From: Verrucomicrobiota bacterium
Lineage (GTDB): Bacteria; Verrucomicrobiota; Verrucomicrobiia; Chthoniobacterales; SZAS-18
Direction: 5' to 3'
Assembly (NCBI GenBank): GCA_025353105.1
Contig: JANXRG010000006.1
Coordinates: forward strand, 1 to 64,000
DNA: 64,000 bases
Shown here one piece after another: positions 29,884 to 53,378 of this stretch. The first letter of the stretch is position 1. Every line of letters begins with the position of its first letter. Under the pieces are notes generated by a model that worked only from the letters and a program-made list of their open reading frames with translations, had not been told where the DNA came from and did no database searches. The translations under genes and the position numbers were made by a program.

Positions 29884-29975
29884 GGATCAGGGAACAAGGA
29901 GGAAGGAAGAAGTGCGGACCCCATCCCCAGACCGCCGCCTTCCCCATTTGTTCCTTCCTCCCTCCTCCTTGTTCC
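29884..29975. repeat. Inverted heptamer arrays (GGAACAA / TTGTTCC)
   Basis: Left half: GGATCAG, GGAACAA, GGAGGAA, GGAAGAA (29884-29911). Right half: TTGTTCC, TTCCTCC, CTCCTCC, TTGTTCC (29948-29975). All units keep exact 7-nt register and the halves are reverse complements, so the transcript could fold into a long purine/pyrimidine stem with a 36-nt loop. It fills the gap between two rightward genes. Confidence 0.9.
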
Positions 29976-29986
29976 TTTAATTCCCC

Positions 29987-31027
29987 ATGTCCCGCACCAC
30001 GCTTCTTCGGCGCTGCTTCGCGATCGCATTCGCCGTGGCCGCGGTGTTGCTGTTCGCGCGTGACTACCTGCCGACGGTCCTGCCGCAGGCGTTCACGTGG
30101 TTCTGGCCGGAGACGACCGGCAAGATCACACGGAGTCGGGTGTTTAACGCGGGCGACGATGAATATCGCCTGACTGATTCGCATTTTTCGGTCCGCTATG
30201 AGTATAGCGTCGGCGGAACTGAATTTACCGGGGCGGATTATCGACTGCACTCAGATGCCACGCAGGGAGTCTGGTACGCCGAACGTCTCGCGAACCGCTT
30301 CCCGGTCGGAAAAACCGTACCGGTCTACTACGATCCGGAGCGGCCCGAGCGCTCCGTGCTGATCCGCGGCTGGATGAGCGAGGACGGCCAGATGTTCCTG
30401 ATGCTCGGGCCGTTGGTCGGGCTGATTGCGATGTTGCTGGGGGGAACTTTATTCGAAGTCAACGCGCTGCGCCGGCGACCGGCGACCGCCGGTTTGATTT
30501 CGCGGGAAGACGGCCGGCGCGTCGAACTCGACGTTCCGTTGGTCGAACCCTGGGTGGCGTTCGCGACGATCATCTTTGTTCTGCCGCTTCTCACCCTCAT
30601 CGTGTTCGCTCTGCTCGTTACGGCCACCCGGAACGCCGCGTTGCTTGATCTCATCTGGTTTGTCTGGCTGGGTTTGATCGCGCTGATTCTCTTCCTGATT
30701 TACAAGGCGCGCGCGTTACTGCGTTCCCGGCGCTGGCGGGTCGTTATTGATCACGCGACCGGAGTCGTTGAGTTACCGGACAAGGCGACGAACGACGGCC
30801 AGACACCGTCAACAATCCCGCTCAAGGAGGTCACGCGCTTCTTTGCCATGACGATGGAGCAGCCCCGTCGCAAGATGGTGCCGCGCAAATACCACGCCGC
30901 CTTGATCGAGTGGCGGGATCCGGAGGCCGACGAGTTGCATCAAGCGGAGATTTTCGAATCGGATTATCCCTGGCGCGCGCGGCACGTGGCCGATTGGCTG
31001 GAAAATCAGCGCACCGCGGTGCGCTGA
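29987..31027 (+). CDS. DUF3592-type membrane protein
   Basis: A 346-residue protein with an N-terminal helix, then an extracytoplasmic domain with the DUF3592 pattern (TTGKITRSRV, YEYSVGGTEFTGADYR, VPVYYDPERPERSVL), followed by three more hydrophobic segments (GPLVGLIAMLLGG, FATIIFVLPLLTLIVFALL, LIWFVWLGLIALILFLIY) and a cytoplasmic tail. Function unknown. Its stop is two bases before a heptamer array, and it faces hrpB. Confidence 0.8.
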   Translation: MSRTTLLRRCFAIAFAVAAVLLFARDYLPTVLPQAFTWFWPETTGKITRSRVFNAGDDEYRLTDSHFSVRYEYSVGGTEFTGADYRLHSDATQGVWYAERLANRFPVGKTVPVYYDPERPERSVLIRGWMSEDGQMFLMLGPLVGLIAMLLGGTLFEVNALRRRPATAGLISREDGRRVELDVPLVEPWVAFATIIFVLPLLTLIVFALLVTATRNAALLDLIWFVWLGLIALILFLIYKARALLRSRRWRVVIDHATGVVELPDKATNDGQTPSTIPLKEVTRFFAMTMEQPRRKMVPRKYHAALIEWRDPEADELHQAEIFESDYPWRARHVADWLENQRTAVR

Positions 31028-31029
31028 AA

Positions 31030-31125
31030 GGAACAAGGAGGAAGGAAGAATAAGTAAGGAACAAATGAAGACGTCCTTCGCGAAAAAAATTTCCATCTTC
31101 TTCCTTCCTCCTTGTTTCTTCTTCC
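31030..31125. repeat. Inverted heptamer arrays between DUF3592 gene and hrpB
   Basis: Left: GGAACAA, GGAGGAA, GGAAGAA, TAAGTAA, GGAACAA (31030-31064). Right: TTCCATC, TTCTTCC, TTCCTCC, TTGTTTC, TTCTTCC (31091-31125). Five units each in exact 7-nt steps, complementary between halves. It occupies nearly the whole gap between two convergent stops and may act as a two-way terminator. Confidence 0.9.
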
Positions 31126-31130
31126 TTTTC

Positions 31131-33698
31131 TCACTTCCACTCGTGTTTCGGATATTTCCGCTGCAATTCCAGTTTGATTTTGGGGTAGCTTTCCTTCCAG
31201 AAATTTGCGAGGTCCTTCGTGATCTGGATGGGTCGCATATTGGGCGCGAGGACTTCAATCGTCACCGGCACGCGGCGCGAAGCGACAAACAACCCTCCCT
31301 CGACGCCGTATAAATCCTGGATGCGCGCGGCGATCACCGGCGGAGCACCGGTGTCATCGTAGCGGAGTTTGCGATTGCGTCCGCCGGGCAGCTCGAGACG
31401 CTCGGGCGCGTATTCGTCCAGCCACGCCTGTTGCCGCGAGGAAAGCCAGCTCTTGAACGTCTTCCACACCGGCCGGTCCTTGATCTGGTTGTAGGTGAAC
31501 GCGCCAAGGCAGAGTTGCTCGAGCAGGGCGAGCCGGTCCTCCGGATTCAACGCCGGCAGCTCCAGTTCCGGCATCCAGACGCGCAGCGAATTGAGCCGCG
31601 CGATCCATTGCTCCACGGCGTCGTCCAGCTGCTCCAGCTTCAATCGCCCCGCGTGGACCTCGGCGGCCAACAGTTTCGCCGATTGTTCGCGGGGCGGATC
31701 CTCGCCCAGCTTCTCGGCCAGGGCCAGGTCGCGGAAATACCGCCGGCGGCGCACGTACACGCGCCGCTGCGGTGCGTCGTAATATGTCTCGTCCTCGTTC
31801 CGAAAATCGTCCGGAAACATCTCGCGCAGCCACTCCTCCTCGATCGCGGTCGCGAGACTCAGCAGCGTGTTGACTTCGGAATCGCGGCCCTCCACCTCGC
31901 GCACCTCCCCCACGACCAGCAGCGGCGCCTCGTGCACCGCGCTTTCGCGCGCGAGGACCCCGCGACGCCCTCCGACCAGCGCGCAGCGCAGCGTGCCGCC
32001 ATCGAGGCGCTTCGCCACCTGATCCGCGAAGCCCGCGAGAATACAGCGCCGGATCTCGTCGCTCGGCGGCGCGCCGTTGCTTTCGATTTCGAGGCCCTCG
32101 TCCTTCGCAATGCGCAGAAACTGTCCGCCCAGCTCCGACGCGGCGCGCGCGGTGAGGCCGTGAATGCCAAGTTTGCGCAGCCGGCCCGGATCGAAATTGC
32201 TCTGCTCGGCGTAGCGCAACGCGCGCATCTGGAGGAAAAAATCCGACTCGCGTTCGTGGCCGAGAATGTCCTCGCGCAACTCGTCCGTGAATTTGTCCGT
32301 CGGACGCATGAAAAGCCCGCGACCCTGCGTCAATGCCGCAAGGCGGGCGATCGCTCCCACGCAGTTGCGCTCCTGCGCGGCCAGCAGCATCCGGGAGTAG
32401 CGCGGATGCACCGGAAACGCGAGCATGCGCCGACCGAGTTCGGTGATGGCGCCGTTCGGCCCGTGCGCGATAGCGCCCAGGCTTTCGAGCAATCGTTCGG
32501 CGCGCTCGAGCGAGCGCCGCTCGGGCGCCTCCAGCCAGCGGAAACCGTGGATGTCGCCCACGCCGCCGGCCTTCAGGGTGAGGACGACCTCGGCCAGATC
32601 GAGCCGCTTCACCTCGGGTAATTCCTGCTGGGCACGGTGAAGGTGATCCTCCTGCGTCCACAGTCGCATGGCGTATCCCTCGGACGTTCGGCCCGCGCGG
32701 CCCGCGCGCTGGTCGGCCGACGCGCGGCTGATCTTTTCGATGAGCAGCGTGTTGATGCCGCGGTACGGATCGAACTTTGCGATGCGCGCGAGCCCGCTGT
32801 CGATGACGAGGCGCACGCCGTCGATCGTGAGCGAAGTCTCGGCGACATTGGTCGAGACCACGACTTTGCGTTTACCCCCTTCGACGGGCGCGAGGGCCGC
32901 GTCCTGATCGTTCACCGGGAGTTCGCCGTGCAACGGGCGGGGCGTCCAATTGCGATCGAGCCGGCTGCGGTTGCGGATTTCCTGGATCGTCCGCGAAATC
33001 TCGAACGCACCCGGCATGAAGATGAGCGCATCGCCGGTCGGAAAATCCGGCGTGAGCCGGTCAAGTTCGTCCGCCGCCAGTTCCCACACCGGTTTCTTGT
33101 CCGCCAGCTTCTGCGGCAGATAATCGATCTCGACGGGAAAGGTACGTCCGGTCGAGGTCAGCGTGACGCTCTTCGGGCCCAGATAATGGGCGAGCAGCGA
33201 CGTCTCGAGCGTCGCGGACATGACGATCAACTTAAGGTCCGGCCGGGTCGACTCCTGCAATTGCAGCGCGCGGGCGAGCGTGATGTCGCCGTACAGATGG
33301 CGCTCATGAAATTCGTCGAAGAGGATCGCGCCCACCTCCGGCAGCTCGGGGTTCGACAGCATCCAACGCAGCAAGATGCCCTCGGTTACAAACTGCAACC
33401 GCGTTTCGCGCGAACTCTGGTTGTCGAAACGAATGGTGTATCCGACCTCGCCCCCGAGCTTCGCGTTCCGCTCCCGCGCCACGCGGCTCGCCAGCATGCG
33501 GGTGGCGAGACGGCGCGGCTGCAGGATCACCGCTTTTCGCTTGTCGCCGAGGAGTCCGGCTTCGAGCAGCATCTGCGGAACCTGCGTGGATTTCCCCGAG
33601 CCAGTCGGCGCCTGCAAAATGAGCCGATCCGTCGCGCGGAGACTTCCGACAATCTCGGACTCCAGCGAATAGATGGGTAAATCGCGCGGTGACGGCAT
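31131..33698 (-). CDS. hrpB: ATP-dependent RNA helicase HrpB
   Basis: An 855-residue DExH helicase of the HrpB type. Motifs in order: I APTGSGKSTQVP, Ia LQPRRLATR, II LFDEFHERHLYGD, III MSATLETS, V VSTNVAETSLTIDGV, VI QRAGRAGR, then helicase-associated and HrpB C-terminal domains (SYPKIKLELQRKYPKHEWK at the end). The cellular role in most bacteria is unknown. Start ATG 33698 is preferred to TTG 33707. It is divergent from glmS. Confidence 0.95.
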   Translation of the reverse strand: MPSPRDLPIYSLESEIVGSLRATDRLILQAPTGSGKSTQVPQMLLEAGLLGDKRKAVILQPRRLATRMLASRVARERNAKLGGEVGYTIRFDNQSSRETRLQFVTEGILLRWMLSNPELPEVGAILFDEFHERHLYGDITLARALQLQESTRPDLKLIVMSATLETSLLAHYLGPKSVTLTSTGRTFPVEIDYLPQKLADKKPVWELAADELDRLTPDFPTGDALIFMPGAFEISRTIQEIRNRSRLDRNWTPRPLHGELPVNDQDAALAPVEGGKRKVVVSTNVAETSLTIDGVRLVIDSGLARIAKFDPYRGINTLLIEKISRASADQRAGRAGRTSEGYAMRLWTQEDHLHRAQQELPEVKRLDLAEVVLTLKAGGVGDIHGFRWLEAPERRSLERAERLLESLGAIAHGPNGAITELGRRMLAFPVHPRYSRMLLAAQERNCVGAIARLAALTQGRGLFMRPTDKFTDELREDILGHERESDFFLQMRALRYAEQSNFDPGRLRKLGIHGLTARAASELGGQFLRIAKDEGLEIESNGAPPSDEIRRCILAGFADQVAKRLDGGTLRCALVGGRRGVLARESAVHEAPLLVVGEVREVEGRDSEVNTLLSLATAIEEEWLREMFPDDFRNEDETYYDAPQRRVYVRRRRYFRDLALAEKLGEDPPREQSAKLLAAEVHAGRLKLEQLDDAVEQWIARLNSLRVWMPELELPALNPEDRLALLEQLCLGAFTYNQIKDRPVWKTFKSWLSSRQQAWLDEYAPERLELPGGRNRKLRYDDTGAPPVIAARIQDLYGVEGGLFVASRRVPVTIEVLAPNMRPIQITKDLANFWKESYPKIKLELQRKYPKHEWK

Positions 33699-33817
33699 TG
33701 CTCTCAACCGAACGCGCAGACCCGCCCAGGTGGCAAATGGAAAAGCCCGAATTCACCTGCCGCTTGCCGATCCCGCAGAAAAACATAGATTTCCACCCAG
33801 TGCGCTCTGCGCCACAG

Positions 33818-33859
33818 ATTTCAGGTTTCGACATTTTGCATTCGGCATTCGGCATCCCC
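33818..33859. repeat. Heptamer array (ATTTCAG to CATTCGG) upstream of glmS
   Basis: ATTTCAG, GTTTCGA, CATTTTG, CATTCGG, CATTCGG and CATCCCC follow one another in exact 7-nt register, ending seven bases before the glmS ATG. The repeat therefore makes up the immediate 5' leader and any ribosome-binding site of glmS. The ATTTCAG word is the one in leuS. Confidence 0.88.
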
Positions 33860-33866
33860 CCTCCCC

Positions 33867-35723
33867 ATGTGCGGCATCGTCGGCTACATCGGCAAGGCTC
33901 CCGCCGCTCCCATCATGCTCGATGGGCTGCATCGGCTCGAGTACCGCGGTTATGACTCGGCCGGGCTGGCCACGCTAAACGGGCATGGGCTGGAGGTGCG
34001 CAAGGCCGTCGGTCGGATTCAAAACCTCGCGGATCTCGTGGGCCGCGAGGGCGTGGGCGGTTCGCTGGGCATCAGCCACACGCGCTGGGCCACGCACGGT
34101 GCGGTGACCAACGAGAACGCGCATCCGCATTTCGACCAGAGCGGCAAGCTCGCTATCGTCCACAACGGCGTCATCGAAAACTACCAGCAGCTCCGCGAGG
34201 AACTCGTGGAACAGGGCCACGCCTTTCGTTCGCAGACGGACACCGAGGTCCTCGCGCACTACATCGGCATGCTCTATGACCGCGTGGGCGGCCCGCCGTC
34301 GAAGGCGAGACTCGTGGACGCGGTGCGCACGACGTTGAACAAGACGATTGGCGCTTACGGCCTTGCGATCATCCACGCGGACCTGCCCGACCTGATGATC
34401 GGCGTTCGGCGCGGCAGCCCCCTGGCACTTGGCTTGGGCAAGGGCGAGCACTTCCTGGCGAGCGACCCGGCGGCTTTTGCGGCGCACACGCGCGAGGTCG
34501 TTTACCTGAACGACTTTGACATGGCCGTGATCGAGCGCGGCCAGTTTGAGATTCGCTCGCTGCTCGGCGGCGGACCCGGGAGCTACGAAGTCAGCGAATT
34601 CGAATTCACCGGCGAAGCGGCGAAGAAGGGCGACTACGCGCACTTCATGCTCAAGGAAATCTACGAGCAGCCGAACACCGTGCGCGACGCCATGCGCGGA
34701 CGCCTCTCACACGAGGATGCCACCGCGCGGCTCGGTGGATTGAACATGACGCCGCAGGAATTGCGCGACATCGACCGCGTCATTCTCTCGGCCTGCGGCA
34801 GCGCCTGTCACGCCGCGCTCGTCGGCGAGTACATTCTCGAGTCGCTTGCGCGCGTCCCGGCGGAGGTCGATTACGCGAGCGAGTTCCGCTGGCGCAACAT
34901 GCCGCTGAACAAGGACACGCTCATCCTCGCCATCAGCCAGAGCGGTGAGACGGCCGACACCCTCGCCGCCCTGCGCGAGGGCATCCGGCGCGGCCACCGC
35001 GTGCGCGGCGTCTGCAACAATGTCGCCAGTACGATCGCGCGCGAAAGCGGCGGCGGCGTGTACATGCACGCCGGACCGGAAATTGGTGTCGCCGCGACGA
35101 AATCCTTCACCAGCCAGGTGGTCATCCTCGCGCTGCTCGCGCTCCTGCTCGGCCGGATCCGGCATCTCTCGTTCGGCGAGGGACTCGCCATCATCAAGGC
35201 GCTGGAGGCGCTCCCCGATCAAATTGCGCGCTGCCTCGAACTGGATTCGAAAATCAAGACGATCGCAGAGAAGTATGCCGACGCGGAAGGCATGCTCTTC
35301 CTCGGGCGGCAGTACAATTATCCCATCGCGCTTGAGGGCGCGTTGAAGATGAAGGAAATTTCCTACATCAACGCGAACGGCCATCCGAGCGGCGAATTGA
35401 AGCACGGCATCATCGCGCTGATTCGCCCCGAATTCCCCAGCGTGTTCATCGCGCCCGACGACACCGTCTTCGAGAAGAACCTGAACAACATCGAGCAGGT
35501 GAAGGCTCGGAAGGGACCGATCATCGCGATCGGCACCGAGGGCGCGACCGGTCGCCTCGACCAGATTTGCAACGACGTCATCGCCGTGCCGCGCACGCTC
35601 GAATTTCTCACCCCACTGCTCACGGTCATCCCCCTTCAGCTCTTCGCCTATCACACCGCCGTGCATCTCGGCTGCGATGTCGACAAGCCGCGCAATCTCG
35701 CCAAGAGCGTGACGGTGGAGTGA
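33867..35723 (+). CDS. glmS: Glutamine-fructose-6-phosphate aminotransferase GlmS
   Basis: A 618-residue enzyme making glucosamine-6-phosphate for cell-wall precursors. The N-terminal glutaminase domain begins MCGIVGYIG with the catalytic Cys next to Met; TRWATHG and HNGVIENY follow. Two SIS domains carry SACGSACHAAL, SQSGETADTLAAL and the C-terminal NLAKSVTVE. No glmS ribozyme is visible upstream; the leader is a heptamer array instead. Confidence 0.97.
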   Translation: MCGIVGYIGKAPAAPIMLDGLHRLEYRGYDSAGLATLNGHGLEVRKAVGRIQNLADLVGREGVGGSLGISHTRWATHGAVTNENAHPHFDQSGKLAIVHNGVIENYQQLREELVEQGHAFRSQTDTEVLAHYIGMLYDRVGGPPSKARLVDAVRTTLNKTIGAYGLAIIHADLPDLMIGVRRGSPLALGLGKGEHFLASDPAAFAAHTREVVYLNDFDMAVIERGQFEIRSLLGGGPGSYEVSEFEFTGEAAKKGDYAHFMLKEIYEQPNTVRDAMRGRLSHEDATARLGGLNMTPQELRDIDRVILSACGSACHAALVGEYILESLARVPAEVDYASEFRWRNMPLNKDTLILAISQSGETADTLAALREGIRRGHRVRGVCNNVASTIARESGGGVYMHAGPEIGVAATKSFTSQVVILALLALLLGRIRHLSFGEGLAIIKALEALPDQIARCLELDSKIKTIAEKYADAEGMLFLGRQYNYPIALEGALKMKEISYINANGHPSGELKHGIIALIRPEFPSVFIAPDDTVFEKNLNNIEQVKARKGPIIAIGTEGATGRLDQICNDVIAVPRTLEFLTPLLTVIPLQLFAYHTAVHLGCDVDKPRNLAKSVTVE

Positions 35724-35739
35724 TCCGTCCGGCGCGCGT

Positions 35740-37836
35740 TCATTTGGCCGGGGCCGGCGTGGTCCAGCGGTTCAACCATGTGAGCACAGTCTCGTGCCAC
35801 TGAAGACTGTTCTGCGGCTTGAGGACCCAGTGATTTTCGTCGGGGAAGTAGAGAAACTGGCTCGGGATGCCGCGCCGCTGCAACGCGGTGAAAATGCCGA
35901 TGGCATGCTCGGCGCCCACCCTGTAATCGAGCGCCCCCTGCACGACGAGCATCGGGGTCTTCCATTTCGCGACGTGGTTGAGGGGGTTATGGCGCTCGTA
36001 TAAATCCGGTTTTTCCCACTGCGTCCCGCCCATCTCCCACTCGTCGAACCACAGCTCATCGGTCGAGTAGGTTCCGAGCCGGGTGTCGAAGACGCCGTCG
36101 TGACAAACCAGACACTTCCAGGGCTCCGTCCAATTGCCCGCGATCCAGGCGATCATGTAGCCTCCGTAGCTGGCGCCCAACGCCGCGGCGCGGTTCGCAT
36201 CGAGAAAGTTGAATTTCTCGAGCGCGAATGCCCAGCCCTTTTTCAAGTCTTCAAGGGGCGCGCCGCCCCAGTCCCCGCTCACTGCGTCGGTGAACTTCTG
36301 GCCGTAGCCGGTGGACCCGTGAAAATCGATGAAGACGACCGCATAACCCGCGCCCGCGTAGATCTGCGGATTCCAGCGATAATGAAACTCGTTGCCGAAG
36401 CTGCCTTGAGGCCCGCCATGAATCAGAAATGCGACCGGATATTTTTTTCCGGCCAAATATCCTGCCGGTTTCATCACGTAGCCGTAAACGGTCTCATCCT
36501 TTGCGCCTTTGAAGGAGAACTGCTCGTAGTCGCCGAAGGTGATGCTCGCGAGCGCAACGGCATTCTGCTGGGTAAGTTGGGTGGGCTTGGCGCCCTCTGT
36601 CGTGGCGCTCCGGAAAAGATCCGCCGGGGCATTCAACGTGGACCTGGCATAGACAATTCCGTCCGCCGAAAGGCTGAAACCCCCGACATTTCCTTGATCG
36701 GTCAGAGCCTTCGTCTTTCCGCTCGCGACGTCGATCGCAAACAGCCGGTTCTGGCCGAGGTCGTCGGCGTTCGTGTAAAGCGTCCGGCCGTCCGCGGAAA
36801 TTTTCAGGGCCGCGGCGCTCCGGTCCCAATCGGGCGCAACCTCGCGCTTCTTGCCGCTCGCCAGATCCAATTCCATGATCCCAAAGCGATCGGCCTCGAA
36901 GCCGGCCCGCTTCATGGCGAGGTAGTAGAGCTTCCGTCCGTCGGGCGACGCGAGCGGATAGCCGTCCCACGCCGGATTATCGGCGGTGAGATTGCGCGGA
37001 GCCCCGCTGCCGTCCGCTGCCGCCGCGTAGATGTCGAAATTCGTCGACCACGCCTCGGCCTTCCCCGCGATGCGCGCGTTGAGATAGAGCGTCTTTCCGT
37101 CGGGCGAGAACGCATACTCCGAGTCGTCGCCGAACGGCTTGGACGGCACGTCGCCGTCGATCCCGCGCGAGACAAGCACGGGCTCGCCCGTGGCCGCGCC
37201 CACCGGATCGAGCGGCAGGGTGAAGAGCTGGGCGCGCGTGCCGTTCGCCCACGTGTCCCAATGCCGGACGAAGAGCTTGTCGAACAACAGGCCGGACGCC
37301 TTCGGCTTCGCCTTCTCATCGAGCCGCTTCTTCGTCTCGCCGAGCGTCGCAGCATCGGGGAAGACCTCGAGCGTGACGGCAAGGCGGCGTCCGTCCGGCG
37401 AAACCATGAAGCTGCCGACGTCGAGGGGCAGCTGCGTGACCGGTTGCGCCTCGCCGCCGTCGAGCGCCAGGCGCCACACCTGGCTTGAACCGGTGCGCGA
37501 CGAGAGAAAATAGACTGCCTTCGCGTCCGGCGACCATCGGGGCGTGTTGGCGTCGACCCCGGGCGCGCTCAGCATCCGCGGCGCGGCGCCCGGCGTCTTC
37601 AGATCGAGCAGCCACAGGCCGTTGACGCCCTTGTTCGTCTCGAGATCCGTCCGACGCACCTGGTACGCGACAAATCTTCCGTCCGGCGAGACGCGCGGAT
37701 CGGAGACCCGCTCCATCAACACGAGGTCGCGCGCGGAAAATGGTTTCTTTTCCGCGGCCTTCGCCTCCGCGCCGGGGAGCGGCACGGCTGCGACCATGGC
37801 GACGAACGCGACGAGTGGGGAGGCAATTTTCAGCAT
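35740..37836 (-). CDS. S9-family prolyl oligopeptidase-like peptidase
   Basis: A 698-residue secreted serine peptidase. After a signal peptide (LVAFVAMVAAVPLPGAEA) there is a beta-propeller with several SPDG repeats (VSPDGRFVAYQ, FSPDGKTLYLN, ASPDGRKLYYL) and a C-terminal alpha/beta-hydrolase domain: oxyanion HGGPQGSFG, nucleophile GASYGGYM, Asp in QGALDYRV and His in DENHWV. It probably cleaves oligopeptides in the periplasm, like acylaminoacyl or dipeptidyl peptidases. Start ATG 37836 begins the signal peptide. Confidence 0.92.
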   Translation of the reverse strand: MLKIASPLVAFVAMVAAVPLPGAEAKAAEKKPFSARDLVLMERVSDPRVSPDGRFVAYQVRRTDLETNKGVNGLWLLDLKTPGAAPRMLSAPGVDANTPRWSPDAKAVYFLSSRTGSSQVWRLALDGGEAQPVTQLPLDVGSFMVSPDGRRLAVTLEVFPDAATLGETKKRLDEKAKPKASGLLFDKLFVRHWDTWANGTRAQLFTLPLDPVGAATGEPVLVSRGIDGDVPSKPFGDDSEYAFSPDGKTLYLNARIAGKAEAWSTNFDIYAAAADGSGAPRNLTADNPAWDGYPLASPDGRKLYYLAMKRAGFEADRFGIMELDLASGKKREVAPDWDRSAAALKISADGRTLYTNADDLGQNRLFAIDVASGKTKALTDQGNVGGFSLSADGIVYARSTLNAPADLFRSATTEGAKPTQLTQQNAVALASITFGDYEQFSFKGAKDETVYGYVMKPAGYLAGKKYPVAFLIHGGPQGSFGNEFHYRWNPQIYAGAGYAVVFIDFHGSTGYGQKFTDAVSGDWGGAPLEDLKKGWAFALEKFNFLDANRAAALGASYGGYMIAWIAGNWTEPWKCLVCHDGVFDTRLGTYSTDELWFDEWEMGGTQWEKPDLYERHNPLNHVAKWKTPMLVVQGALDYRVGAEHAIGIFTALQRRGIPSQFLYFPDENHWVLKPQNSLQWHETVLTWLNRWTTPAPAK

Positions 37837-37959
37837 GGGAGTCGCGAAGTTTCCGGTTTTCGCGCCGCCAATCCAAGCAGATAAGTCCGGCGCGGGCGCG
37901 GGACCTGCCGTCGTCGCGATGGACAAGGGACGCGCGGTCCGCTAGAGCCGGGCTGTCCC

Positions 37960-45224: not shown

Positions 45225-45512
45225 TCACGGCACGATGCGGAACACCTGATCCAGGCGCGCGATCTGAAAGACCTTCATCACGTTTGGCCGGATACCCGCG
45301 AGCGCGAACTCGCCACCGTAGGATTGCGTGCGCTGCATTGCGTCAATCATCGTCGCGAGGCCGGAGCTGTCCATGTACGTCACCCCGCTCAAGTCGACGC
45401 GAATGCTCGCGGTGCGCGAGGCAATGAGCGGATCGAGTCGGGCGAGCACCTGCGCCGACTGGTGCAAATCAATTTCGCCATCGAGGGCGACCACTGCGGG
45501 TTCAGCAGACAT
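45225..45512 (-). CDS. STAS-domain anti-sigma factor antagonist
   Basis: A 95-residue single STAS domain: VVALDGEIDLHQSAQVLARL, LSGVTYMDSSGLATMIDAM, with the phosphorylatable Ser in DSSGLA, and LAGIRPNVMKVFQIARLDQVF. It should bind an anti-sigma kinase or another partner in a partner-switching cascade; none is in the window. Convergent with the glycosyltransferase gene (5 bases apart). Start at MSAEPAVVAL. Confidence 0.92.
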   Translation of the reverse strand: MSAEPAVVALDGEIDLHQSAQVLARLDPLIASRTASIRVDLSGVTYMDSSGLATMIDAMQRTQSYGGEFALAGIRPNVMKVFQIARLDQVFRIVP

Positions 45513-45625
45513 GGCAGACAGGATTCCTTGGCCGCCGATTTTCTGCAATCGACCGCGCGCGGCGAGGAAAATCGTGTGGCCATCCCGCTTGCCGCCTCCT
45601 CCCTTCGCGTCTCCCTTTGTTCGAC

Positions 45626-46237: not shown

Positions 46238-46288
46238 ACGTGGCGACCGCTTGCCGTCGCACCCCATTTGTGGCGACAATGCACCCTC

Positions 46289-47413: not shown

Positions 47414-47421
47414 GGTCTGTC

Positions 47422-47805
47422 ATGTCCGCCGATTCCTCGTCCGCCCAGATCATCTTCAACACGATCAGCGCGAGCGAGATCGCGCAGCTCCCGAAGTTGA
47501 CGCAGCTGGAGCTGCTCACGGGCTTCAAGTCTGACCTCTCGAATTTCGACCAGCTTGACCCCGAGAAATTCGGCATCATCCGGCGCGAGGGGAAGAAACT
47601 GCGGCGCTACCGCATGAAGGATTACCGCGTGTATTTCGAGCGCGTGCCGGAAGGCCTGGCGATTCACCGGATTTTGCACCGGAACACGCTCGCGGATTTT
47701 CTCTTTCGCTCGAACCTGCCATTCGCGGAGGACGAGCAACTCGGGGAGGCCAAATCTTTTTGGAAATTGATCGAGGAGGGCGAGAAGGCCCAGCGCAAGC
47801 CGTGA
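47422..47805 (+). CDS. RelE/ParE-fold protein without an evident antitoxin
   Basis: A 127-residue protein. The middle (residues 58-92) has the RelE-superfamily pattern GKKLRRYRMKDYRVYFERVP and IHRILHRNTLADF. Flanking N-terminal (about 50 residues) and C-terminal extensions are unusual for a toxin. A GAGG six bases before ATG 47422 supports this start. No small antitoxin gene precedes or follows; it sits in a tight alr-HAD run, so a housekeeping RNA or ribosome-binding role is as likely as toxicity. Confidence 0.7.
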   Translation: MSADSSSAQIIFNTISASEIAQLPKLTQLELLTGFKSDLSNFDQLDPEKFGIIRREGKKLRRYRMKDYRVYFERVPEGLAIHRILHRNTLADFLFRSNLPFAEDEQLGEAKSFWKLIEEGEKAQRKP

Positions 47806-47807
47806 AG

Positions 47808-48500
47808 ATGCCGGAAGACGCGGCCCCGCGGGCCGTCATCTTCGACATGGACGGCCTCATGATCGACTCGGAGGTGATTTACCAGATGGCGTGGAGGCGG
47901 GCGATTCGCGAATTCGACCGGGAAATGCCCGACGAGACATTCCGGCGGTTTCTGGGCCGAAACAGCCCGGATTCCCACACGCTGCTCGCGGAAATCTACG
48001 GGGTTGAATTCGATGCCGCAGGATTCATGGGCCGCTGCAATGGGATCGCGGATGAGCATATCGCGACGCACGGTATCCCACACAAGCCTGGCCTCGGGGA
48101 TCTCCTCCTTTCGCTTGAAAGGCACGGGATGCGGAAGGGCGTGGCAACATCGACGCGGCGCGAATGGGCGCTGCGCAGCCTCGGCCCGCTCGTGGCGCGG
48201 TTTGAAGTGCTGACAACCGGCGACGAGGTGGCGCGCGGCAAGCCCGCGCCGGACATCTTTCTGCTTTGCGCGGAACGACTCAACGCCGCGCCACATGAAT
48301 GCCTTGTCCTGGAGGATTCGGAAGCCGGCATTCGCGCGGCACACGCAGCGGGCATGCGTGCGATCATGGTTCCGGACCTCGTGGGGCCAACCGATGAAAT
48401 CCGCGCGCTGGCGTGGCGGGTGTGTGCCTCACTGGAAGACGTGAGGACGATGGAGTGGGGAAACTCGAAATTCGAAACGCGAAGCTCGAAGAAAGTCTAA
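47808..48500 (+). CDS. HAD-superfamily phosphatase, beta-phosphoglucomutase-like
   Basis: A 230-residue HAD hydrolase: VIFDMDGLMIDSE with the nucleophile and acid/base Asp, VATSTRREWALR, GKPAPDIFLL and LVLEDSEAGIRAA. The substrate is probably a sugar phosphate. The last 14 residues (from WGNSKFETRSS) come from a 7-nt repeat array and do not belong to the fold. The GTG at 47802 overlapping the previous stop is another possible start. Confidence 0.85.
   Translation: MPEDAAPRAVIFDMDGLMIDSEVIYQMAWRRAIREFDREMPDETFRRFLGRNSPDSHTLLAEIYGVEFDAAGFMGRCNGIADEHIATHGIPHKPGLGDLLLSLERHGMRKGVATSTRREWALRSLGPLVARFEVLTTGDEVARGKPAPDIFLLCAERLNAAPHECLVLEDSEAGIRAAHAAGMRAIMVPDLVGPTDEIRALAWRVCASLEDVRTMEWGNSKFETRSSKKV
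48459..48493 (+). repeat. Heptamer array (CGAAACG) forming the 3' end of the HAD gene
   Basis: GGAAACT, CGAAATT, CGAAACG, CGAAGCT and CGAAGAA in exact 7-nt steps, running to within a few bases of the stop codon. The array is translated as the tail NSKFETRSSKK. GGAAACT recurs at about 48524. The rest of the gap to 48589 has no gene. Confidence 0.88.
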
Positions 48501-48589
48501 GGCCGAAAAAATTGGGAAACTCAAAGGGCTCGTTTGCCGTTTTCCCGCTTCAAACATATTTGATACTTTCTTCGAGTTTTTCGTCCCGG

Positions 48590-48859
48590 CTACAAGCGCC
48601 CCAAAAACAGGTACCAAGCCGTCACGACCAGCAGCAGCAACCCGACGACCCACCAAATTAGCCGCATAACATTGCCGTCACGCGCGGGCCGACGCGGTTC
48701 ATCTTCAAAAGCTTCGTCCGGCAGATCGAGGCCGTCGTATTCGGCATCCTCATTCCAGCCGGTCTTGTCACAGGAACCGCACTCGCGACACGACTTCGCC
48801 CCGGCGGCAACAAACTCGCCGCAAACCGGGCAATCACCGGGAGGTCGGAAGCGCGCCAT
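48590..48859 (-). CDS. Small membrane protein with a double-Cys zinc ribbon
   Basis: An 89-residue protein: an N-terminal zinc-ribbon-like pair CPVCG and CRECG, an acidic linker (DLPDEAFEDEP) and one C-terminal helix (LIWWVVGLLLLVVTAWYLFLG) that would leave the ribbon in the cytoplasm. Function unknown. It reads from just downstream of the GNAT gene and is likely co-transcribed with it. Confidence 0.75.
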   Translation of the reverse strand: MARFRPPGDCPVCGEFVAAGAKSCRECGSCDKTGWNEDAEYDGLDLPDEAFEDEPRRPARDGNVMRLIWWVVGLLLLVVTAWYLFLGRL

Positions 48860-48862
48860 GGT

Positions 48863-49348
48863 TCACATCATCCGCTGCATGAAGACCACGTCGAGCCACT
48901 GGCGGAACTTAAATCCCACTTCGCGCAAGTGCGCGGTGGTGACAAAGCCGTGCTGCTCGTGCAGGACGATGCTGCCCTCCTGACCCGCTTCAATGCCGGC
49001 AACGATGGAATGCACGTCCAGCTCCTTCGCCCGCTCGATCAGATCGGCCAGCATAGCCCCGCCGATGCCGCGCCGTTGCCGATCCTCCCGCACGTACACG
49101 GAATTCTCGACCGTAAACCGGTAGGCGCAGCGCGACCGGTACTTCGAAAGCGAGGCCCAGGCGACCACCTCGTTATCAATCACCCCGACCGTCGCGGGAT
49201 ACGACCCCCGATGCAGCTCGAACCAGGCATCGCGCTCCGCCTCGCTCATCAAATCCTCGTCCAGCGTGCAGGTCGAATGAAGAACGTAATGATTGTAGAT
49301 GGCATTGATCGCCGGGAGATCGGCGCGCTCAGCGAGGCGAATCATCAT
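48863..49348 (-). CDS. GNAT acetyltransferase, phosphinothricin/MnaT-like
   Basis: A 161-residue N-acetyltransferase: IRLAERADLPAINAIYNHYV, the CoA loop VREDRQRRGIGGAML, and HEQHGFVTTAHLREVGFKF, which match the Pat/MnaT group acetylating amino groups of methionine analogues or phosphinothricin-like compounds. Start at MM (49348/49345). A heptamer array fills the gap from the gatA stop. Confidence 0.87.
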   Translation of the reverse strand: MMIRLAERADLPAINAIYNHYVLHSTCTLDEDLMSEAERDAWFELHRGSYPATVGVIDNEVVAWASLSKYRSRCAYRFTVENSVYVREDRQRRGIGGAMLADLIERAKELDVHSIVAGIEAGQEGSIVLHEQHGFVTTAHLREVGFKFRQWLDVVFMQRMM

Positions 49349-49357
49349 GGAAGAAAA

Positions 49358-49464
49358 GGAACAGGGAGGAAGGAAGAAGACAATGACCTCCGCAAGCGAG
49401 ATAAATCCTTCCAAATGCTTCCGACATCAAACTCTCTTGTTCCTTCCTCCTTCTACCTTGTTCC
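49358..49464. repeat. Inverted heptamer arrays between gatA and the GNAT gene
   Basis: Left: GGAACAG, GGAGGAA, GGAAGAA (49358-49378). Right: TTGTTCC, TTCCTCC, TTCTACC, TTGTTCC (49437-49464). Exact 7-nt register, complementary halves, about 58 bp between. The right half begins six bases beyond the gatA stop. Confidence 0.9.
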
Positions 49465-49469
49465 TTTTC

Positions 49470-50939
49470 TTAAAGCGCCGGCCGCTTCTGGTGCCACTCA
49501 GTCGTCTGCTCGTACACGTGCGCGATCCGCAGAAGATTTGACTCCGCGAACGCTGGCGCCAGGAACTGCAGGCCGATCGGCAGGGGTTTGCCGGGTGAAA
49601 GTGTCTCATCAAAGCCGCCCGGGACGCTGATGCCCGGAATCCCCGCGAGATTCGCGGCGATCGTGAAAATATCCGCGAGATACATCTGCAGCGGATCCGC
49701 GGTGCGCTCGCCCAGCTTGAACGCTGCGCACGGCGAGGTCGGGCAGACGATGGCGTCCACTTTTTCAAAGGCCTGAAAAAAGTCGCGCCGGATCAGCGTC
49801 CGCACCTTCTGCGCCCGGAGGTAATATGCGTCGTGGTATCCGCTGCTGAGCACGTGCGTGCCGAGGATGATGCGCCGCTTCACTTCCGGACCGAAGCCCT
49901 CGGCGCGCGTGCGCATGTAGTGGTCGAGCAGCCCCGTGGGATCGGTCGCGCGATGGCCGTATCGCACGCCATCGAAGCGCGCGAGATTCGCCGAGGCCTC
50001 GGCGGTGGCGACGATGTAATAGACGCCGACCGCGTACTCAGTGTGCGGCAGCGAGACCTCGATGATTTCCGCACCAAGCCTTTCACAATGCGCCACGGCG
50101 GCGCGCACGGCCTTGGTCACGGCCGGCGTGATGCCCTCGATGAAATATTCCTTCGGCAATCCAAGCTTCACGCCCCGCAGATCCTTCGCGCCCGCCAGCG
50201 CCGCGACATAGTCAGGGACGGGATCATCGACACTCGTCGAATCCATCGGATCCTTGCCGGCCATCAAACCGAGCAGGATGGCGGAATCTTCCACCGTCTT
50301 GGTGAACGGGCCGATCTGGTCGAGCGACGACGCAAATGCGACCAGACCATACCGCGAGATGCGGCCATAGGTGGGCTTGAGGCCGACGCAGCCACAGAGC
50401 GCAGCCGGCTGGCGAATTGATCCGCCGGTGTCGCTGCCGAGAGCCGCGAAGGCGAGATCGGCGCCCACCGAGGCGGCGGAGCCACCCGACGAGCCGCCGG
50501 GCACGCGATCGAAATCCCAGGGATTGTGCGTGATCCCCTTCGACGAATTCTCGGTCGATGAGCCCATGGCAAATTCGTCCATGTTCAGCCGGCCAAATGG
50601 AATCGCGCCCGCCGCGCGCAGGCGCGCGACCGCCGTGGCGTCGTAGGGTGCGATGTAACCGTCAAGAATGTGCGAAGCGCAGCCGCAAGGTTGACCCTTC
50701 ACGTTGAGCACGTCCTTCATGCCGATCGGAATGCCGCCGAGAGGCAGATTCACGTCCGCGGCGGCTGCGGCTTGGCGAGCGCCGGTGAGATCATGCGAGA
50801 GATAGGCACGCACCTTTGGATCGACCTTCTCGAGGCGCGCGGCCAGCGCGTCGATCACGTCGACCGGCGAGCATTCACGCGCGCGTAACGCGGTGCGGAG
50901 GGCGCCGACGGAAAGAAATGGGATGTCCTGCGGACTCAT
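49470..50939 (-). CDS. gatA: Aspartyl/glutamyl-tRNA amidotransferase subunit A
   Basis: A 489-residue amidase. GatA releases ammonia from glutamine for the GatCAB complex, which converts Glu-tRNA-Gln and Asp-tRNA-Asn. The catalytic Ser-cis-Ser-Lys region includes GMKDVLNVKG, VPGGSSGGSAASVGADL and SDTGGSIRQPAALCG. It follows gatC by 15 bases. gatB is not in the window, so the complex is split across loci. Confidence 0.96.
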   Translation of the reverse strand: MSPQDIPFLSVGALRTALRARECSPVDVIDALAARLEKVDPKVRAYLSHDLTGARQAAAAADVNLPLGGIPIGMKDVLNVKGQPCGCASHILDGYIAPYDATAVARLRAAGAIPFGRLNMDEFAMGSSTENSSKGITHNPWDFDRVPGGSSGGSAASVGADLAFAALGSDTGGSIRQPAALCGCVGLKPTYGRISRYGLVAFASSLDQIGPFTKTVEDSAILLGLMAGKDPMDSTSVDDPVPDYVAALAGAKDLRGVKLGLPKEYFIEGITPAVTKAVRAAVAHCERLGAEIIEVSLPHTEYAVGVYYIVATAEASANLARFDGVRYGHRATDPTGLLDHYMRTRAEGFGPEVKRRIILGTHVLSSGYHDAYYLRAQKVRTLIRRDFFQAFEKVDAIVCPTSPCAAFKLGERTADPLQMYLADIFTIAANLAGIPGISVPGGFDETLSPGKPLPIGLQFLAPAFAESNLLRIAHVYEQTTEWHQKRPAL

Positions 50940-51270: not shown

Positions 51271-51642
51271 TCAAGACAGCGCGCTCCACAACATGAAGAT
51301 CACGACGAGAAGAAAAACGATTAGCGCCCACGTCTGCTGCTTGATGGCGCGTTGCTCGACCTTGAGGCGGACCGCGCGGCGCGGTCCGGGAGAACGCTGG
51401 CCCGCGAGCGTGCGGGGCCGGTCGATGCTGGTCTCGCGCTCCGCCGCCGCCCGCGCCTGCACGCGCTCGACCTCCTTGCGCCGCAATTGCTCCGCCACCT
51501 TCGGCGCCTGCTCGATCGCGCGCTGCGCCGCCTCGATTTCCGCCCGAACCCGTTTCTGCTCGACCCCCAGCTGATCGAGGTTGCCAAAGAGCGCGGGCGT
51601 GTCGGCATCCGTCGATTTCGAGGAGCGTTTCTTGTTCGGCAT
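51271..51642 (-). CDS. Tail-anchored protein of unknown function
   Basis: A 123-residue protein with a basic start (MPNKKRSSKS), a helical Glu/Arg/Ala-rich middle (residues 28-75, probable coiled coil) and a C-terminal helix (TWALIVFLLVVIFMLWSAL) that ends the protein. No family recognised. It shares this plan with the next gene upstream (51737). Confidence 0.65.
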   Translation of the reverse strand: MPNKKRSSKSTDADTPALFGNLDQLGVEQKRVRAEIEAAQRAIEQAPKVAEQLRRKEVERVQARAAAERETSIDRPRTLAGQRSPGPRRAVRLKVEQRAIKQQTWALIVFLLVVIFMLWSALS

Positions 51643-51736
51643 GAGGGTTCGGTGAAATCGATCGGACTTTATTGAACGCGCCGCGTTTGGAACAAAAAAC
51701 TGTTCGCGCGAACGCGGCGGGGGCGCGGCTATATCC

Positions 51737-52384
51737 TCACGCGACTCGCCACAGCCGCCAGCACAAAATGCAAAAGATCATCAAAGTGATCACCAGGAGC
51801 GGGAGGGTGAACGCGAAACCCGCCTTCAGCCAGTACAGGAACGGTTGTTCATTCGCGCGACCGGATTCACCGGCGCCATCGACGGCGTCGCTGCCGTCGG
51901 CCTCGGGCCCGAGAAGCTTGACCCGGGCCTGATTGTAATCGTTGCGCGCGACATCCAACAGACCCAACGCGCGCGTTAGTTCCTTGCCGGCTTCCGCCTG
52001 CGACCAGCGCGTCGGCTCAATCGCCTCGAGCGCCCCCATGTGAGTCCGGAAATTTCCCGTCCCGCCTTCGAGTTGCTCCACCCGGCGGTGCGCGTCGGCG
52101 GTCTGCCGCTCGAGGAACGCCAGTCCACGCGTCAGCTTGTCGAGCAATTCCTCGCGGCCGACTTGAAACTCACCCTGCCGGCGGGCCAGATCCTCGAGGT
52201 CACGCTTTTGCCGCTCGAGCATTTCCTGCTCGCGCCGCAGGTGCGCGAGTTTTTCCTGCGTCCGCGCCACGTCGTCCGCGAGTTGTTCCGGCGTCAGCGA
52301 ACCCTCGGCTTCCTCGGAAAGTAATTCGCCCGTGGCGGACTCGGGGTGGGCGACGGATTGCAGTTTGCTGTAATAGCGGGGCAT
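51737..52384 (-). CDS. Coiled-coil protein with C-terminal membrane helix, unknown function
   Basis: A 215-residue protein. Residues about 30-110 are a heptad-like coiled coil (KLAHLRREQEMLERQKRDLE), residues 125-160 another helix and the end carries a membrane helix (AGFAFTLPLLVITLMIFCILCWRL). It may be a membrane-bound scaffold. It lies between prmA and the similar 51271 gene. Confidence 0.65.
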   Translation of the reverse strand: MPRYYSKLQSVAHPESATGELLSEEAEGSLTPEQLADDVARTQEKLAHLRREQEMLERQKRDLEDLARRQGEFQVGREELLDKLTRGLAFLERQTADAHRRVEQLEGGTGNFRTHMGALEAIEPTRWSQAEAGKELTRALGLLDVARNDYNQARVKLLGPEADGSDAVDGAGESGRANEQPFLYWLKAGFAFTLPLLVITLMIFCILCWRLWRVA

Positions 52385-52414
52385 GGGGCGAAGCGCGTAG
52401 GACGGTCTCCTTTA

Positions 52415-53371
52415 TTATCGCGTCGCGCGCCGCTTTGCCACCGCTTTCGCGCGGTGCCGCAGATGGAGTGCGCGCCAGCGACCCTGGCGACGAATTTCCA
52501 CGAGCTCAAGCCCGGCCGACCCGGCCGCCGCCCGCACTTCATCGGCCTGATCCGCGAGCAGGCCCGAGACAATGAGGTCGCCATCTGCCGCCAGCGCGCG
52601 GCGCAGCTTGGGCATCACGCGCACAAGCACGATGCTGAACAAATTCGCAGTGATGACGTCCCACCGCTGTGCTGGCTTCCACGCGTGGACGTCGGCCACC
52701 GTGAACTTCACCCCGCGCACACCATTGAGCCGTCCGTTTTCGCGGGCGGTCCGCACGCAGGGCGGATCGTAGTCGAGGGCCATCGCACCTTGCGCGCCCA
52801 GCGCCCGCGCGGCCAGCGCGAGCACGCCGCTGCCCGTTCCCAGATCCAGCATGTTCCAACGCGCGGCGATCCGTCGACCCGCGCCGCCAAGCAGAAGCCT
52901 CAGGCACATCGCCGTGGTCGCGTGCTCTCCGGTGCCAAACGCCAGCGCCGCGGGAATGCACAGGACGACGCGCTGGGGATACTTTGCCCGAAGCGACGCG
53001 AGTTCCTCCTCGCGACCCGTCACGACCAACCGGTCGCCAAAAAGCAGCGGTTTGGCCGCGACCGGAGCGCCGCGCGGTCGCCATGACTCCGGGCGCAACG
53101 GCCGGAGACCGCCCCCGAAGCGCCCGACGATGCGCTCCCCTTCCGCGCGGGTCAGGCAATAGTATTCGATCCGCAGACCACGTGCGCCCGCCATCTGGAT
53201 CACCGCCAGTCGCGAGCCGTCCAATCCGCGCAGACGCTCCACCCAGGCGTCTGCCCATTTCGCCGAAGCGAGCTTGCGCCAGACGAAGCGAGGTGACCAA
53301 TGAGTGACGGGTGACAAGTAACGAGTTGGGCGGCGAGCGGTTGTTGCTTTTACTTTCTCGTCACTTGTCAC
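52415..53371 (-). CDS. prmA: Ribosomal protein L11 methyltransferase PrmA-like
   Basis: A 318-residue methyltransferase with the PrmA signature FGTGEHATTAMCLRLL, motif I LDLGTGSGVLAL, and the NLFSIVLVRVMPKL catalytic loop in place of the usual NILA. PrmA trimethylates L11. GTG 53371, six bases after the upstream stop, and TTG 53317 are the only plausible starts, and both lie in a 7-nt repeat array. The encoded N-terminal TSDEKVKATTARRPTRYL is therefore repeat-derived. Confidence 0.85.
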   Translation of the reverse strand: MTSDEKVKATTARRPTRYLSPVTHWSPRFVWRKLASAKWADAWVERLRGLDGSRLAVIQMAGARGLRIEYYCLTRAEGERIVGRFGGGLRPLRPESWRPRGAPVAAKPLLFGDRLVVTGREEELASLRAKYPQRVVLCIPAALAFGTGEHATTAMCLRLLLGGAGRRIAARWNMLDLGTGSGVLALAARALGAQGAMALDYDPPCVRTARENGRLNGVRGVKFTVADVHAWKPAQRWDVITANLFSIVLVRVMPKLRRALAADGDLIVSGLLADQADEVRAAAGSAGLELVEIRRQGRWRALHLRHRAKAVAKRRATR

Positions 53372-53378
53372 TCTTCTT
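53293..53378. repeat. Inverted heptamer arrays (GTGACAA) at the start of prmA
   Basis: Left: GTGACCA (53293), GTGACGG, GTGACAA and GTAACGA (53304-53324). Right: TCGTCAC, TTGTCAC, TCTTCTT (53358-53378). The halves are complementary. The array spans the cobW-like stop and the first codons of prmA. Confidence 0.88.

What the first reader, a model, noticed from the sequence alone, without database searches (positions are those of the whole stretch)
29884..53378. A class of dispersed arrays sharing a 7-nt period but not a sequence
At least nine sites in the window (9979, 10910, 15335, 29884, 31030, 33818, 48459, 49358, 53293, and a degraded one at 63310) contain units of exactly 7 nt in register, yet the units belong to different families: ATTTCAG, GAAGTCC, GTCGACG, GGAACAA/GGAGGAA, CATTCGG, CGAAACG, GTGACAA. 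The shared period with unrelated sequence suggests one mechanism that makes or spreads heptamers, not one mobile sequence. Cyanobacterial STRR heptamers are the nearest analogy I know.
Basis: partly seen in the sequence, partly recalled or inferred. Interest (0 to 1): 0.85.

Follow-up and report, generated by a model that had tools for sequence, protein, structure and literature searches.

The report
Seven-base repeats with changing words
Between its genes this bacterium keeps many short repeats that step by seven bases but use different seven-letter words in different relatives, at times at the same spot, which suggests that the step size rather than the sequence is what keeps being made.

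Summary
In 629 gene gaps of this genome (part of 1.05 Mb examined of 3.72 Mb), 61 arrays have period 7, against 0-4 for every other period from 3 to 13 and 0.07 in simulation. The arrays use many unrelated words.
They are not fixed: one word has 202 matches in a congener and none here. Two orthologous spacers carry arrays of different words in relatives, and two LeuS loops carry different words in different lineages.
This is a multi-word form of a known, unexplained class: the intergenic heptamers of Xanthomonas and Nostoc. The G-quadruplex idea made for those does not fit here (1 of 76 arrays).
Best explanation: slippage in 7-nt steps makes arrays where they are tolerated, and some words then spread as palindromic families. 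Tests for transposase linkage, local arm copying and terminator matches were negative within their limits. Why 7 stays open.

The parts
9979..10007 (+). ATTTCAG x4.1 in frame inside leuS (loop between NWIGKSEGA and VFTTRPDT), encodes FQISDFRFQ
10910..10933 (+). GAAGTCC/GAAATCC array inside leuS (loop between YWM and VDLYVGG), encodes [10 protein letters not shown]
15335..15360 (.). GTCGACG array in the gap 15323-15470 between two leftward genes
29881..29978 (.). Palindrome with arms 29881-29918 and 29941-29978 of GGARSAR heptads, filling most of the gap 29880-29986
   Evidence: RNA fold -43.7 kcal/mol, z -5.45
31028..31120 (.). Palindrome with GGARSAR arms in the gap 31028-31130 between convergent genes
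   Evidence: fold z -5.0
33827..33855 (.). CATTCGG (CCGAATG) array just upstream of the glmS-like gene (SIS and glutamine amidotransferase domains)
48460..48491 (+). CGAARYT array; left arm overlaps the end of the predicted HAD-hydrolase gene 47802-48500
48565..48584 (+). Right arm of the same palindrome (pairs with 48477-48496)
   Evidence: I11; fold z -2.7
49351..49471 (.). Palindrome with GGARSAR arms 49351-49379 and 49443-49471, filling the gap 49349-49469
   Evidence: fold z -5.3
53306..53376 (.). Palindrome with arms 53306-53325 and 53357-53376 of GTGACNN heptads (about three units), below the lag threshold
   Evidence: fold z -4.0
63308..63334 (+). Single decayed GGAACAA/GGAACAG array with a register slip

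Best explanation
The sites are intergenic heptanucleotide repeats, a class known from other bacteria, here in a multi-word form. Shown: period 7 alone is in excess between genes; the words are many, unrelated and differ between congeners; arrays lie mostly between genes, close to gene edges, and often form palindromes whose purine-rich arm is 5'; two orthologous spacers and the same two LeuS loops carry arrays of different words in different lineages. Inferred: arrays arise repeatedly by strand slippage or template realignment in steps of seven nucleotides, wherever selection tolerates them. Neighbouring units copy each other, words drift while the register is kept, and some words (CGAARYT; perhaps ATAGGCN in a congener) are then spread through one genome as palindromic elements by a copying step not identified here. 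The gene-edge position and purine-first order are read as the result of selection, which spares promoters and favours (or tolerates) hairpins whose 3' arm is pyrimidine-rich in either transcript.
For: Period: 61 versus 0-4 and 0.07 simulated; contigs taken by number 22 versus at most 2. Many words: 35 canonical units in 76 arrays of G000; 18 in 31 arrays of the smaller G001 sample, 4 shared. Turnover: ATAGGCN 202 overlapping matches in G001, 0 in G000, G002 and G003-G006; CGAARYT 40, 72 and 49 in the three genomes of the genus (controls 0, 1, 2), and 0, 4, 0, 0 in G003-G006 (G004 control 4). Same site, other word: groES-groEL and ruvC-cobalamin adenosyltransferase spacers. LeuS: 10 period-7 windows in 100 gene copies, one at period 8, none at 4, 5, 6, 10, 11, 13; 8 of the 10 in two loops, in 6 genomes. 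Neighbouring units are more alike than those 2, 3 or 4 units apart (5.16, 4.83, 4.46, 3.90 of 7). Purine arm first in 36 of 36 arrays with a partner, 25 palindromes; the purine strand reads away from the nearer gene edge in 41 of 50, 21 of 26 and 10 of 11 arrays in three sets.
Against: No strain pair close enough to see a 7-nt step was available, so slippage is not observed. The fall of similarity with distance is partly built into the detection of arrays, and similarity rises again beyond five units. CGAARYT elements share caps and inner bases outside the heptads, which slippage alone cannot give. Only 2 of 30 syntenic comparisons had arrays on both sides (about 1.2 expected by independence; some share a gene pair), and the G000 groES-groEL spacer scores 17 of 24, below the 18 used elsewhere: word change is shown, site preference is not. 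In a fourth set (2 arrays from order-level genomes) the edge rule held in 1 of 2. Depletion between divergent genes is not significant in G001 (3 of 38 versus 12 of 79, p 0.38). Samples of three order-level relatives (G008, G012, G014; 41-100 kb) have no period-7 array, so the class is patchy. A survey of prokaryotic genomes calls tandem repeats of longer units generally normally represented (PMC4060949, passages).
Confidence: 0.5

Rival explanations
1. The arrays are arms of mobile palindromes (REPIN- or MITE-like), moved in trans by a transposase; heptads are only their internal structure.
For: CGAARYT elements share caps (gAAact) and inner bases CGAAGnAAgnT on both sides of a variable centre, with tens of matches in each of three congeners. 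GGARSAR palindromes have alike arms but loops hardly more alike than shuffled ones (6.2 versus 5.6, 7 elements); REPIN spacers are likewise less conserved than their ends (PMC3116915, passages). The genome has 8 Y1-transposase (PF01797) matches.
Against: 0 of 8 Y1 loci hold a heptad array of this class or a GGARSAR, CGAARYT, CGANGGT or CGAAYGC pair (one A-rich low-complexity stretch reaches 17 of 24 in L322); the loci reach at most 1.5 kb per side and several are cut by contig ends. 38 of 66 intergenic arrays have no inverted partner at the score used. LeuS loops hold different words in different lineages. It does not explain why unrelated words share period 7.
Confidence: 0.25
2. The palindromes are selected RNA hairpins at gene 3' ends (bidirectional terminators or mRNA stabilisers); the period is incidental.
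For: Inverted repeats found without regard to period lie in 11 of 62 convergent, 20 of 331 tandem and 1 of 108 divergent gaps; of 32, 17 have a purine-rich first arm and none a pyrimidine-rich one. RNA folds of seven palindromes: z -2.7 to -5.45.
Against: 30 of 50 purine- or pyrimidine-rich arrays in G000 have no partner at the score used. The groES-groEL array does not fold (z 0.31) and lies inside what is normally an operon (recalled). In the 40 elements the heptad arms are 33-167 nt apart. None of 17 terminator-like matches in 29800-49600 falls on an array and shuffles give 19.8, though that scan allows loops of 3-8 only. Period 7 also occurs in coding loops.
Confidence: 0.15
3. A protein that binds contiguous 7-bp iterons keeps the arrays, as omega of pSM19035 does with its heptads (recalled; only listings seen).
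For: Exact register; a protein of that kind exists elsewhere.
Against: 35 canonical units in 76 arrays and private words per congener are hard to reconcile with one sequence-specific protein; no such protein was searched for.
Confidence: 0.05
4. G-quadruplex formation selects the repeats, as considered for GGGAATC and GGGGAYT heptamers.
For: Same layout in Xanthomonas (PMC4692102, sections 10 and 16 read).
Against: Only 1 of 76 arrays has four G3 or C3 tracts on one strand.
Confidence: 0.01

Closest known systems
GGGAATC / GGGGA(C/T)T heptamer repeats of Xanthomonas and Nostoc (PMC4692102; sections 10 and 16 and passages read)
   Same: Period 7; in Xanthomonas 89-93% intergenic, nearer to the 5' neighbouring ORF (28 nt) than to the next (160 nt), 70 and 75 convergent inverted pairs in two species, rare between divergent genes; length and sequence vary between the two species.
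   Different: There one G-rich word type that can form G-quadruplexes, mostly between the same genes in both species; here many words, nearly none of which can, and words replaced at orthologous sites.
Heptamer repeats as the most abundant tandem DNA repeats in intergenic regions of many prokaryotes (SPADE survey, PMC6344855; passages read); excess of heptameric SSRs reported in 2007 (Mrazek and others, name recalled; paper not held, known through PMC4692102)
   Same: Excess of period 7 in gene gaps; the survey says there is no clear clue to its function.
   Different: The passages seen count repeats; geometry, word turnover and shared sites between relatives are added here.
TAACTGA direct repeats of marine Beggiatoaceae (PMC4679880; abstract and section 24 read)
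   Same: Intergenic heptamer repeats, patchy between relatives.
   Different: One word, mostly just upstream of a start codon, 169 direct sets and one indirect repeat; here many words and many inverted pairs.
REPINs (PMC3116915; passages read)
   Same: Inverted pairs between genes with a less conserved spacer.
   Different: REPs lie beside RAYT genes, which was not found here; heptad arms are not part of the passages seen.
Tandem repeats of Borgs (PMC9879509; passages read)
   Same: Arise independently, between genes and in frame in genes; A-enriched.
   Different: Units such as 18, 20 and 21 nt, perfect copies, in-gene units divisible by three.

Membership tests
Intergenic heptamer repeats (Xanthomonas/Nostoc type) | Tandem unit of 7 nt, no other period in excess between genes | tested here: met
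Intergenic heptamer repeats (Xanthomonas/Nostoc type) | Mostly intergenic | tested here: met
   65 intergenic, 9 coding in 1.05 Mb
Intergenic heptamer repeats (Xanthomonas/Nostoc type) | Nearer to the gene on the 5' side of the purine strand | tested here: met
   GGARSAR median 9.5 versus 87 nt; 41 of 50 arrays
Intergenic heptamer repeats (Xanthomonas/Nostoc type) | Convergent inverted pairs | tested here: met
   28 of 66 arrays versus 4 of 66 in the control; purine arm first 36 of 36 arrays
Intergenic heptamer repeats (Xanthomonas/Nostoc type) | Under-represented between divergent genes | tested here: met
   2 of 102 versus 30 of 344, p 0.016, in G000; not significant in G001, 3 of 38 versus 12 of 79
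Intergenic heptamer repeats (Xanthomonas/Nostoc type) | G-quadruplex-forming word | tested here: not met
   1 of 76 arrays
Cyanobacterial STRR | The STRR words themselves (recalled) | not tested
   Words recalled only; none searched
REPIN / REP-RAYT | REPs beside RAYT (Y1 transposase) genes | tested here: not met
   0 of 8 PF01797 loci; loci short, some cut by contig ends
REPIN / REP-RAYT | Inverted pair around a less conserved spacer | tested here: met
   GGARSAR and CGAARYT elements
REPIN / REP-RAYT | GTAG or CGTC tag | not tested
   Not searched
MITE | Conserved terminal inverted repeats | tested here: met
   CGAARYT: gAAact on both outer sides; GGARSAR little beyond aAa
MITE | Target-site duplication and empty sites | not testable with these tools
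   No close relative; congener genes compared are 70-80% identical in DNA
Intrinsic terminator | Stem with short loop and T run | tested here: not met
   No terminator-like match on an array in 29800-49600; heptad arms 33-167 nt apart
Rickettsia palindromic element (recalled) | In-frame insertion of palindromes in genes | tested here: inconclusive
   LeuS loop 2 of L040 and L029 holds heptads in both orientations in frame (by eye); membership of one sequence family not tested
Known RNA family | Match to Rfam 15 at gathering scores | tested here: not met
   0 matches in the window

The most novel reading that the evidence does not exclude
The cell has an activity that writes seven-nucleotide repeats of any word (an enzyme, or a polymerase with a 7-nt realignment step). 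One process would then underlie the heptamer repeats of Verrucomicrobiota, Xanthomonas, cyanobacteria and others; the word is arbitrary and replaceable, while the step and the purine-first geometry are fixed.
Probability: 0.15. Interest if true: 0.9.

Novelty: new variant of a known kind. Interest (0 to 1): 0.6.

Why it matters
Why tandem heptamers are so abundant between prokaryote genes has been called unexplained (PMC6344855). Replacement of the word at the same spacer within a genus, and different words in the same two LeuS loops, separate the period from the sequence. That argues against explanations tied to one sequence (G-quadruplex, one binding protein) and gives concrete loci where the 7-nt step can be tested.

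Tried and rejected
Chance or base composition: rejected. Assembly artefact: thought unlikely, since arrays lie in many contigs and in relatives; not tested with reads. Local correction of quasi-palindromes, each arm copied from its partner: not supported; own arms are no more alike than arms of other elements (GGARSAR 10 elements, 17.2 versus 18.4, p 0.94; CGAARYT 19 elements, 17.0 versus 17.2, p 0.67). Polarity as a mere by-product of composition: gaps without arrays are less purine-skewed reading away from genes (0.52 after stops, 0.56 before starts, against 0.60 and 0.65 with arrays, G000), so background may contribute. Period hidden in the loops: weak; lag 7 is 0.31 against 0.25 shuffled in CGAARYT loops, but lags 8-10 are raised as well. 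A shared outer cap for all words: looked at by eye only, not tested.

Results against the reading. With a loose pattern, 16 GGARSAR candidates were purine-first and 3 pyrimidine-first; the 10 with two or more units in both arms are all purine-first, and among those where one arm is a single unit it is 6 to 3. All 24 CGAARYT candidates (19 with two or more units in both arms) are purine-first. The GGARSAR count in G001 (67) has a control of 41 and is not used. In a phylum sample CGAARYT occurs in 6 and GGARSAR in 31 of 387 genomes, G000 included, so these words look recent; the rest of the phylum was not searched. Of 30 syntenic comparisons, 20 had no array on either side, 5 in G000 only, 3 in the relative only.

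Rows dropped: stretches of N in G001 (counts included them; one search repeats without: 28 intergenic arrays at period 7, 7 at period 6); arrays of mixed purine content; L035 from the LeuS alignment (stop codon).

Full report
Where it is. The window is bases 1-64000 of contig 57 (73,979 bp) of a 3.72-Mb genome in 121 contigs, 97.6% complete. The best named LeuS relatives are Verrucomicrobia (65-67% identity).

Observation. Eight of the ten listed places reach a lag-7 threshold in the window; the other two are weaker but visible. I examined 61 pieces of this genome including the window (1,054,578 bp of 3.72 Mb). Part of the sample lay on contigs already known to hold matches, so I also counted 408,375 bp from contigs taken by number. 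Intergenic arrays by period 4 to 13: 0, 0, 0, 65, 1, 1, 4, 0, 0, 0 in all; in the part taken by number, 22 at period 7 and at most 2 elsewhere. Simulation of the gene gaps gives 0.07 where 61 are seen. In coding DNA multiples of three dominate (15, 20 and 16 at periods 6, 9 and 12); period 7 has 9, still above the other non-triplet periods (3, 2, 0, 0, 1, 1 at 4, 5, 8, 10, 11, 13). Smaller samples of relatives: G001 28 intergenic at period 7 (7 at 6, 5 at 9), G013 4, G031 2, none in G008, G012, G014 and G019.

Anatomy. Of 66 intergenic arrays, 28 have an inverted partner within 150 bp, against 9 with a direct one and 4 in a control with swapped flanks (score 12 or more). A separate scan for inverted repeats, blind to period, finds 32 in gaps of 50-500 bp; their first arms repeat at lag 7 (identity 0.52; 0.47 at lag 14; other lags 2-15 0.20-0.34). 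They lie in 11 of 62 convergent, 20 of 331 tandem and 1 of 108 divergent gaps. Seventeen have a purine-rich first arm, none a pyrimidine-rich one. A purine-first palindrome reads the same from both strands, so this is a property of the element and not of strand choice. The order is the same in other genomes: 20 of 20 arrays with a partner here (16 palindromes), 12 of 12 in the congener G001 (7) and 4 of 4 in 80 loci of many phyla (2). In these three sets the purine strand reads away from the nearer gene edge in 41 of 50, 21 of 26 and 10 of 11 arrays; a fourth set of two arrays gave 1 of 2. GGARSAR arrays sit a median 9.5 nt from the gene on their 5' side and 87 nt from the one on their 3' side. 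Seven palindromes folded as RNA have z-scores of -2.7 to -5.45.

Two families in detail. GGARSAR: 57 matches in the genome against 4 for the reversed pattern. Of 16 purine-first candidates, 10 have two or more units in both arms. Arms are alike, loops are hardly more alike than shuffled ones (6.2 versus 5.6 over 7 elements), and almost nothing outside is conserved. CGAARYT: 40 matches against 0. Its 24 candidates also share outer and inner bases beyond the heptads, with a variable centre that is purine-rich on the left (0.63) and poor on the right (0.42). The second family therefore looks copied from place to place; the first need not be. Arms of one element are not more alike than arms of different elements in either family, so arms do not seem to correct each other locally.

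Turnover. CGAARYT has 40, 72 and 49 matches in the three genomes of the genus that were searched and 0, 4, 0, 0 in G003-G006 of the family (the 4 in G004 equal its control). ATAGGCN has 202 in G001 and none in the other six. GGARSAR has 57 in G000, 1 in G002, none in G003-G006, and 67 in G001, where the control is 41. Matches overlap, so they exceed the number of sites. In a phylum sample of 387 genomes, CGAARYT occurs in 6 and GGARSAR in 31, G000 included; in that sample the largest GGARSAR count apart from G000 is in the distant G359 (46).

Same site, other word. Thirty syntenic comparisons with relatives were possible (some share a G000 gene pair): arrays at 17 of 24 or more on both sides in 2, in G000 only in 5, in the relative only in 3, in neither in 20. 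Both shared cases differ in word. The groES-groEL spacer (Pfam Cpn10 and Cpn60) holds short CAGAGGA-type and CTCATCA-type runs here (score 17) and GGAAGAA/GGAGGAA units in G001 (score 21), whose two proteins are 87 and 89% identical; the spacers of order-level relatives G013 and G012 score 14 and 9. The spacer between ruvC and a cobalamin adenosyltransferase holds a CGAARYT palindrome here and ATGACNN plus TCRTAAA arrays in G004 of another genus. Two of 30 is about what independence would give (1.2), so this shows word change, not site preference.

LeuS. Both arrays at 9979 and 10910 are read in frame inside leucyl-tRNA synthetase at loops that vary in length among relatives. Among 100 leuS copies (the window, 80 loci, 19) there are 10 windows with period 7, one with period 8 and none with 4, 5, 6, 10, 11 or 13 (9 and 12 were not scored). 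Eight of the ten lie in these two loops, in six genomes, with words such as ATTTCAG, AAATTTC, GGAATTC, AGAATTC/AGAATCC, GAAGTCC, CAACTCT, GTTGNNN and AAGTGTC. Loop 2 of L040 and of L029 holds heptads in both orientations, in frame (by eye). Selection for tolerated insertion can explain the place; it does not explain the period.

Mechanism. Shown: period, words, geometry, turnover. Inferred: a process with a 7-nt step makes arrays; slippage is the simplest. Neighbouring units are most alike, and arrays drift in word while keeping register (for example L223 near 2110, read by eye). Also inferred: some words then spread as palindromes. No link to Y1 transposases was found (0 of 8 loci), and no Rfam match in the window. 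Terminator-like matches do not fall on the arrays examined, and the groES-groEL array does not fold.

Known context. [quoted passage not shown]). The Xanthomonas and Nostoc heptamers share nearly every positional trait found here (PMC4692102, sections 10 and 16); its discussion reports the hypothesis that the DNA segment held by the polymerase sets the 7. Their G-quadruplex property does not hold here (1 of 76). Some bacterial satellite families are said to derive from heptamers (PMC6749651, passages). Against this, another survey calls repeats of longer units generally normally represented (PMC4060949, passages). Listings of ten searches in this library showed no description of such arrays in Verrucomicrobiota or of word replacement at orthologous sites; not every listed paper was opened. 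One verrucomicrobial genome paper reports 54 short tandem repeats without unit sizes in the passages seen (PMC4210602). The library lacks most subscription papers.

Verdict. Real, and part of a known but unexplained class. The multi-word turnover and the shared sites are the new part. The mechanism is a reasoned inference at about even odds.

Noticed in passing
window 39083-39123: Short palindrome (AAATGCTTGGGACGTTTCG / CGAAACGTCCCTACCATTT) that matches 16 listed places in the other-genus genome G004 at 84-100% identity (list cut short), a separate dispersed REP-like family without heptads; similar sequence at L025 near 9225.
   Followed up: no
window 41964-42071; L027 near 18916: GC-rich imperfect palindrome with GGCTACAA / TTGTAGCC ends, found at these two places among the pieces examined.
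   Followed up: no
window 48460-48500: The CGAARYT arm runs into the predicted HAD-hydrolase gene, so the element seems to supply the last residues and the stop codon of that protein.
   Followed up: partly
L022 near 5151, L219 near 8046, L209 near 9002, L009 near 16842: Other intergenic palindromes with internally repeated arms that are not heptads (CAGATTA-, CACGAAG- and CACAGAG-type, judged by eye).
   Followed up: no
L229 near 1200-1500 (G001, upstream of glmS): Six-nt units (GACGAG type) in inverted arrangement; the G001 sample also shows 7 intergenic arrays of period 6 where G000 has none.
   Followed up: partly
L044, LeuS loop 2: One leuS copy has an array of period 8 (CGATTCAA type) at the loop where others have period 7.
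   Followed up: no
L300 near 611 and L341 near 2334: Inside the two different heptad elements of the ruvC spacer there may be a shared remnant (CCGA-GCG-AGCG-GAGATAG on one strand), seen by eye.
   Followed up: no
window 63860-63974: 33-nt tandem repeat, 3.5 copies, a multiple of three, inside a predicted gene that runs off the window.
   Followed up: no
L026 (contig 10, about 7-14 kb): A cluster where arrays of several words (GGARSAR, CCGAATG, CAGAGGA, CGAARYT) lie end to end or close together, including a long CAGAGGA-type array.
   Followed up: no
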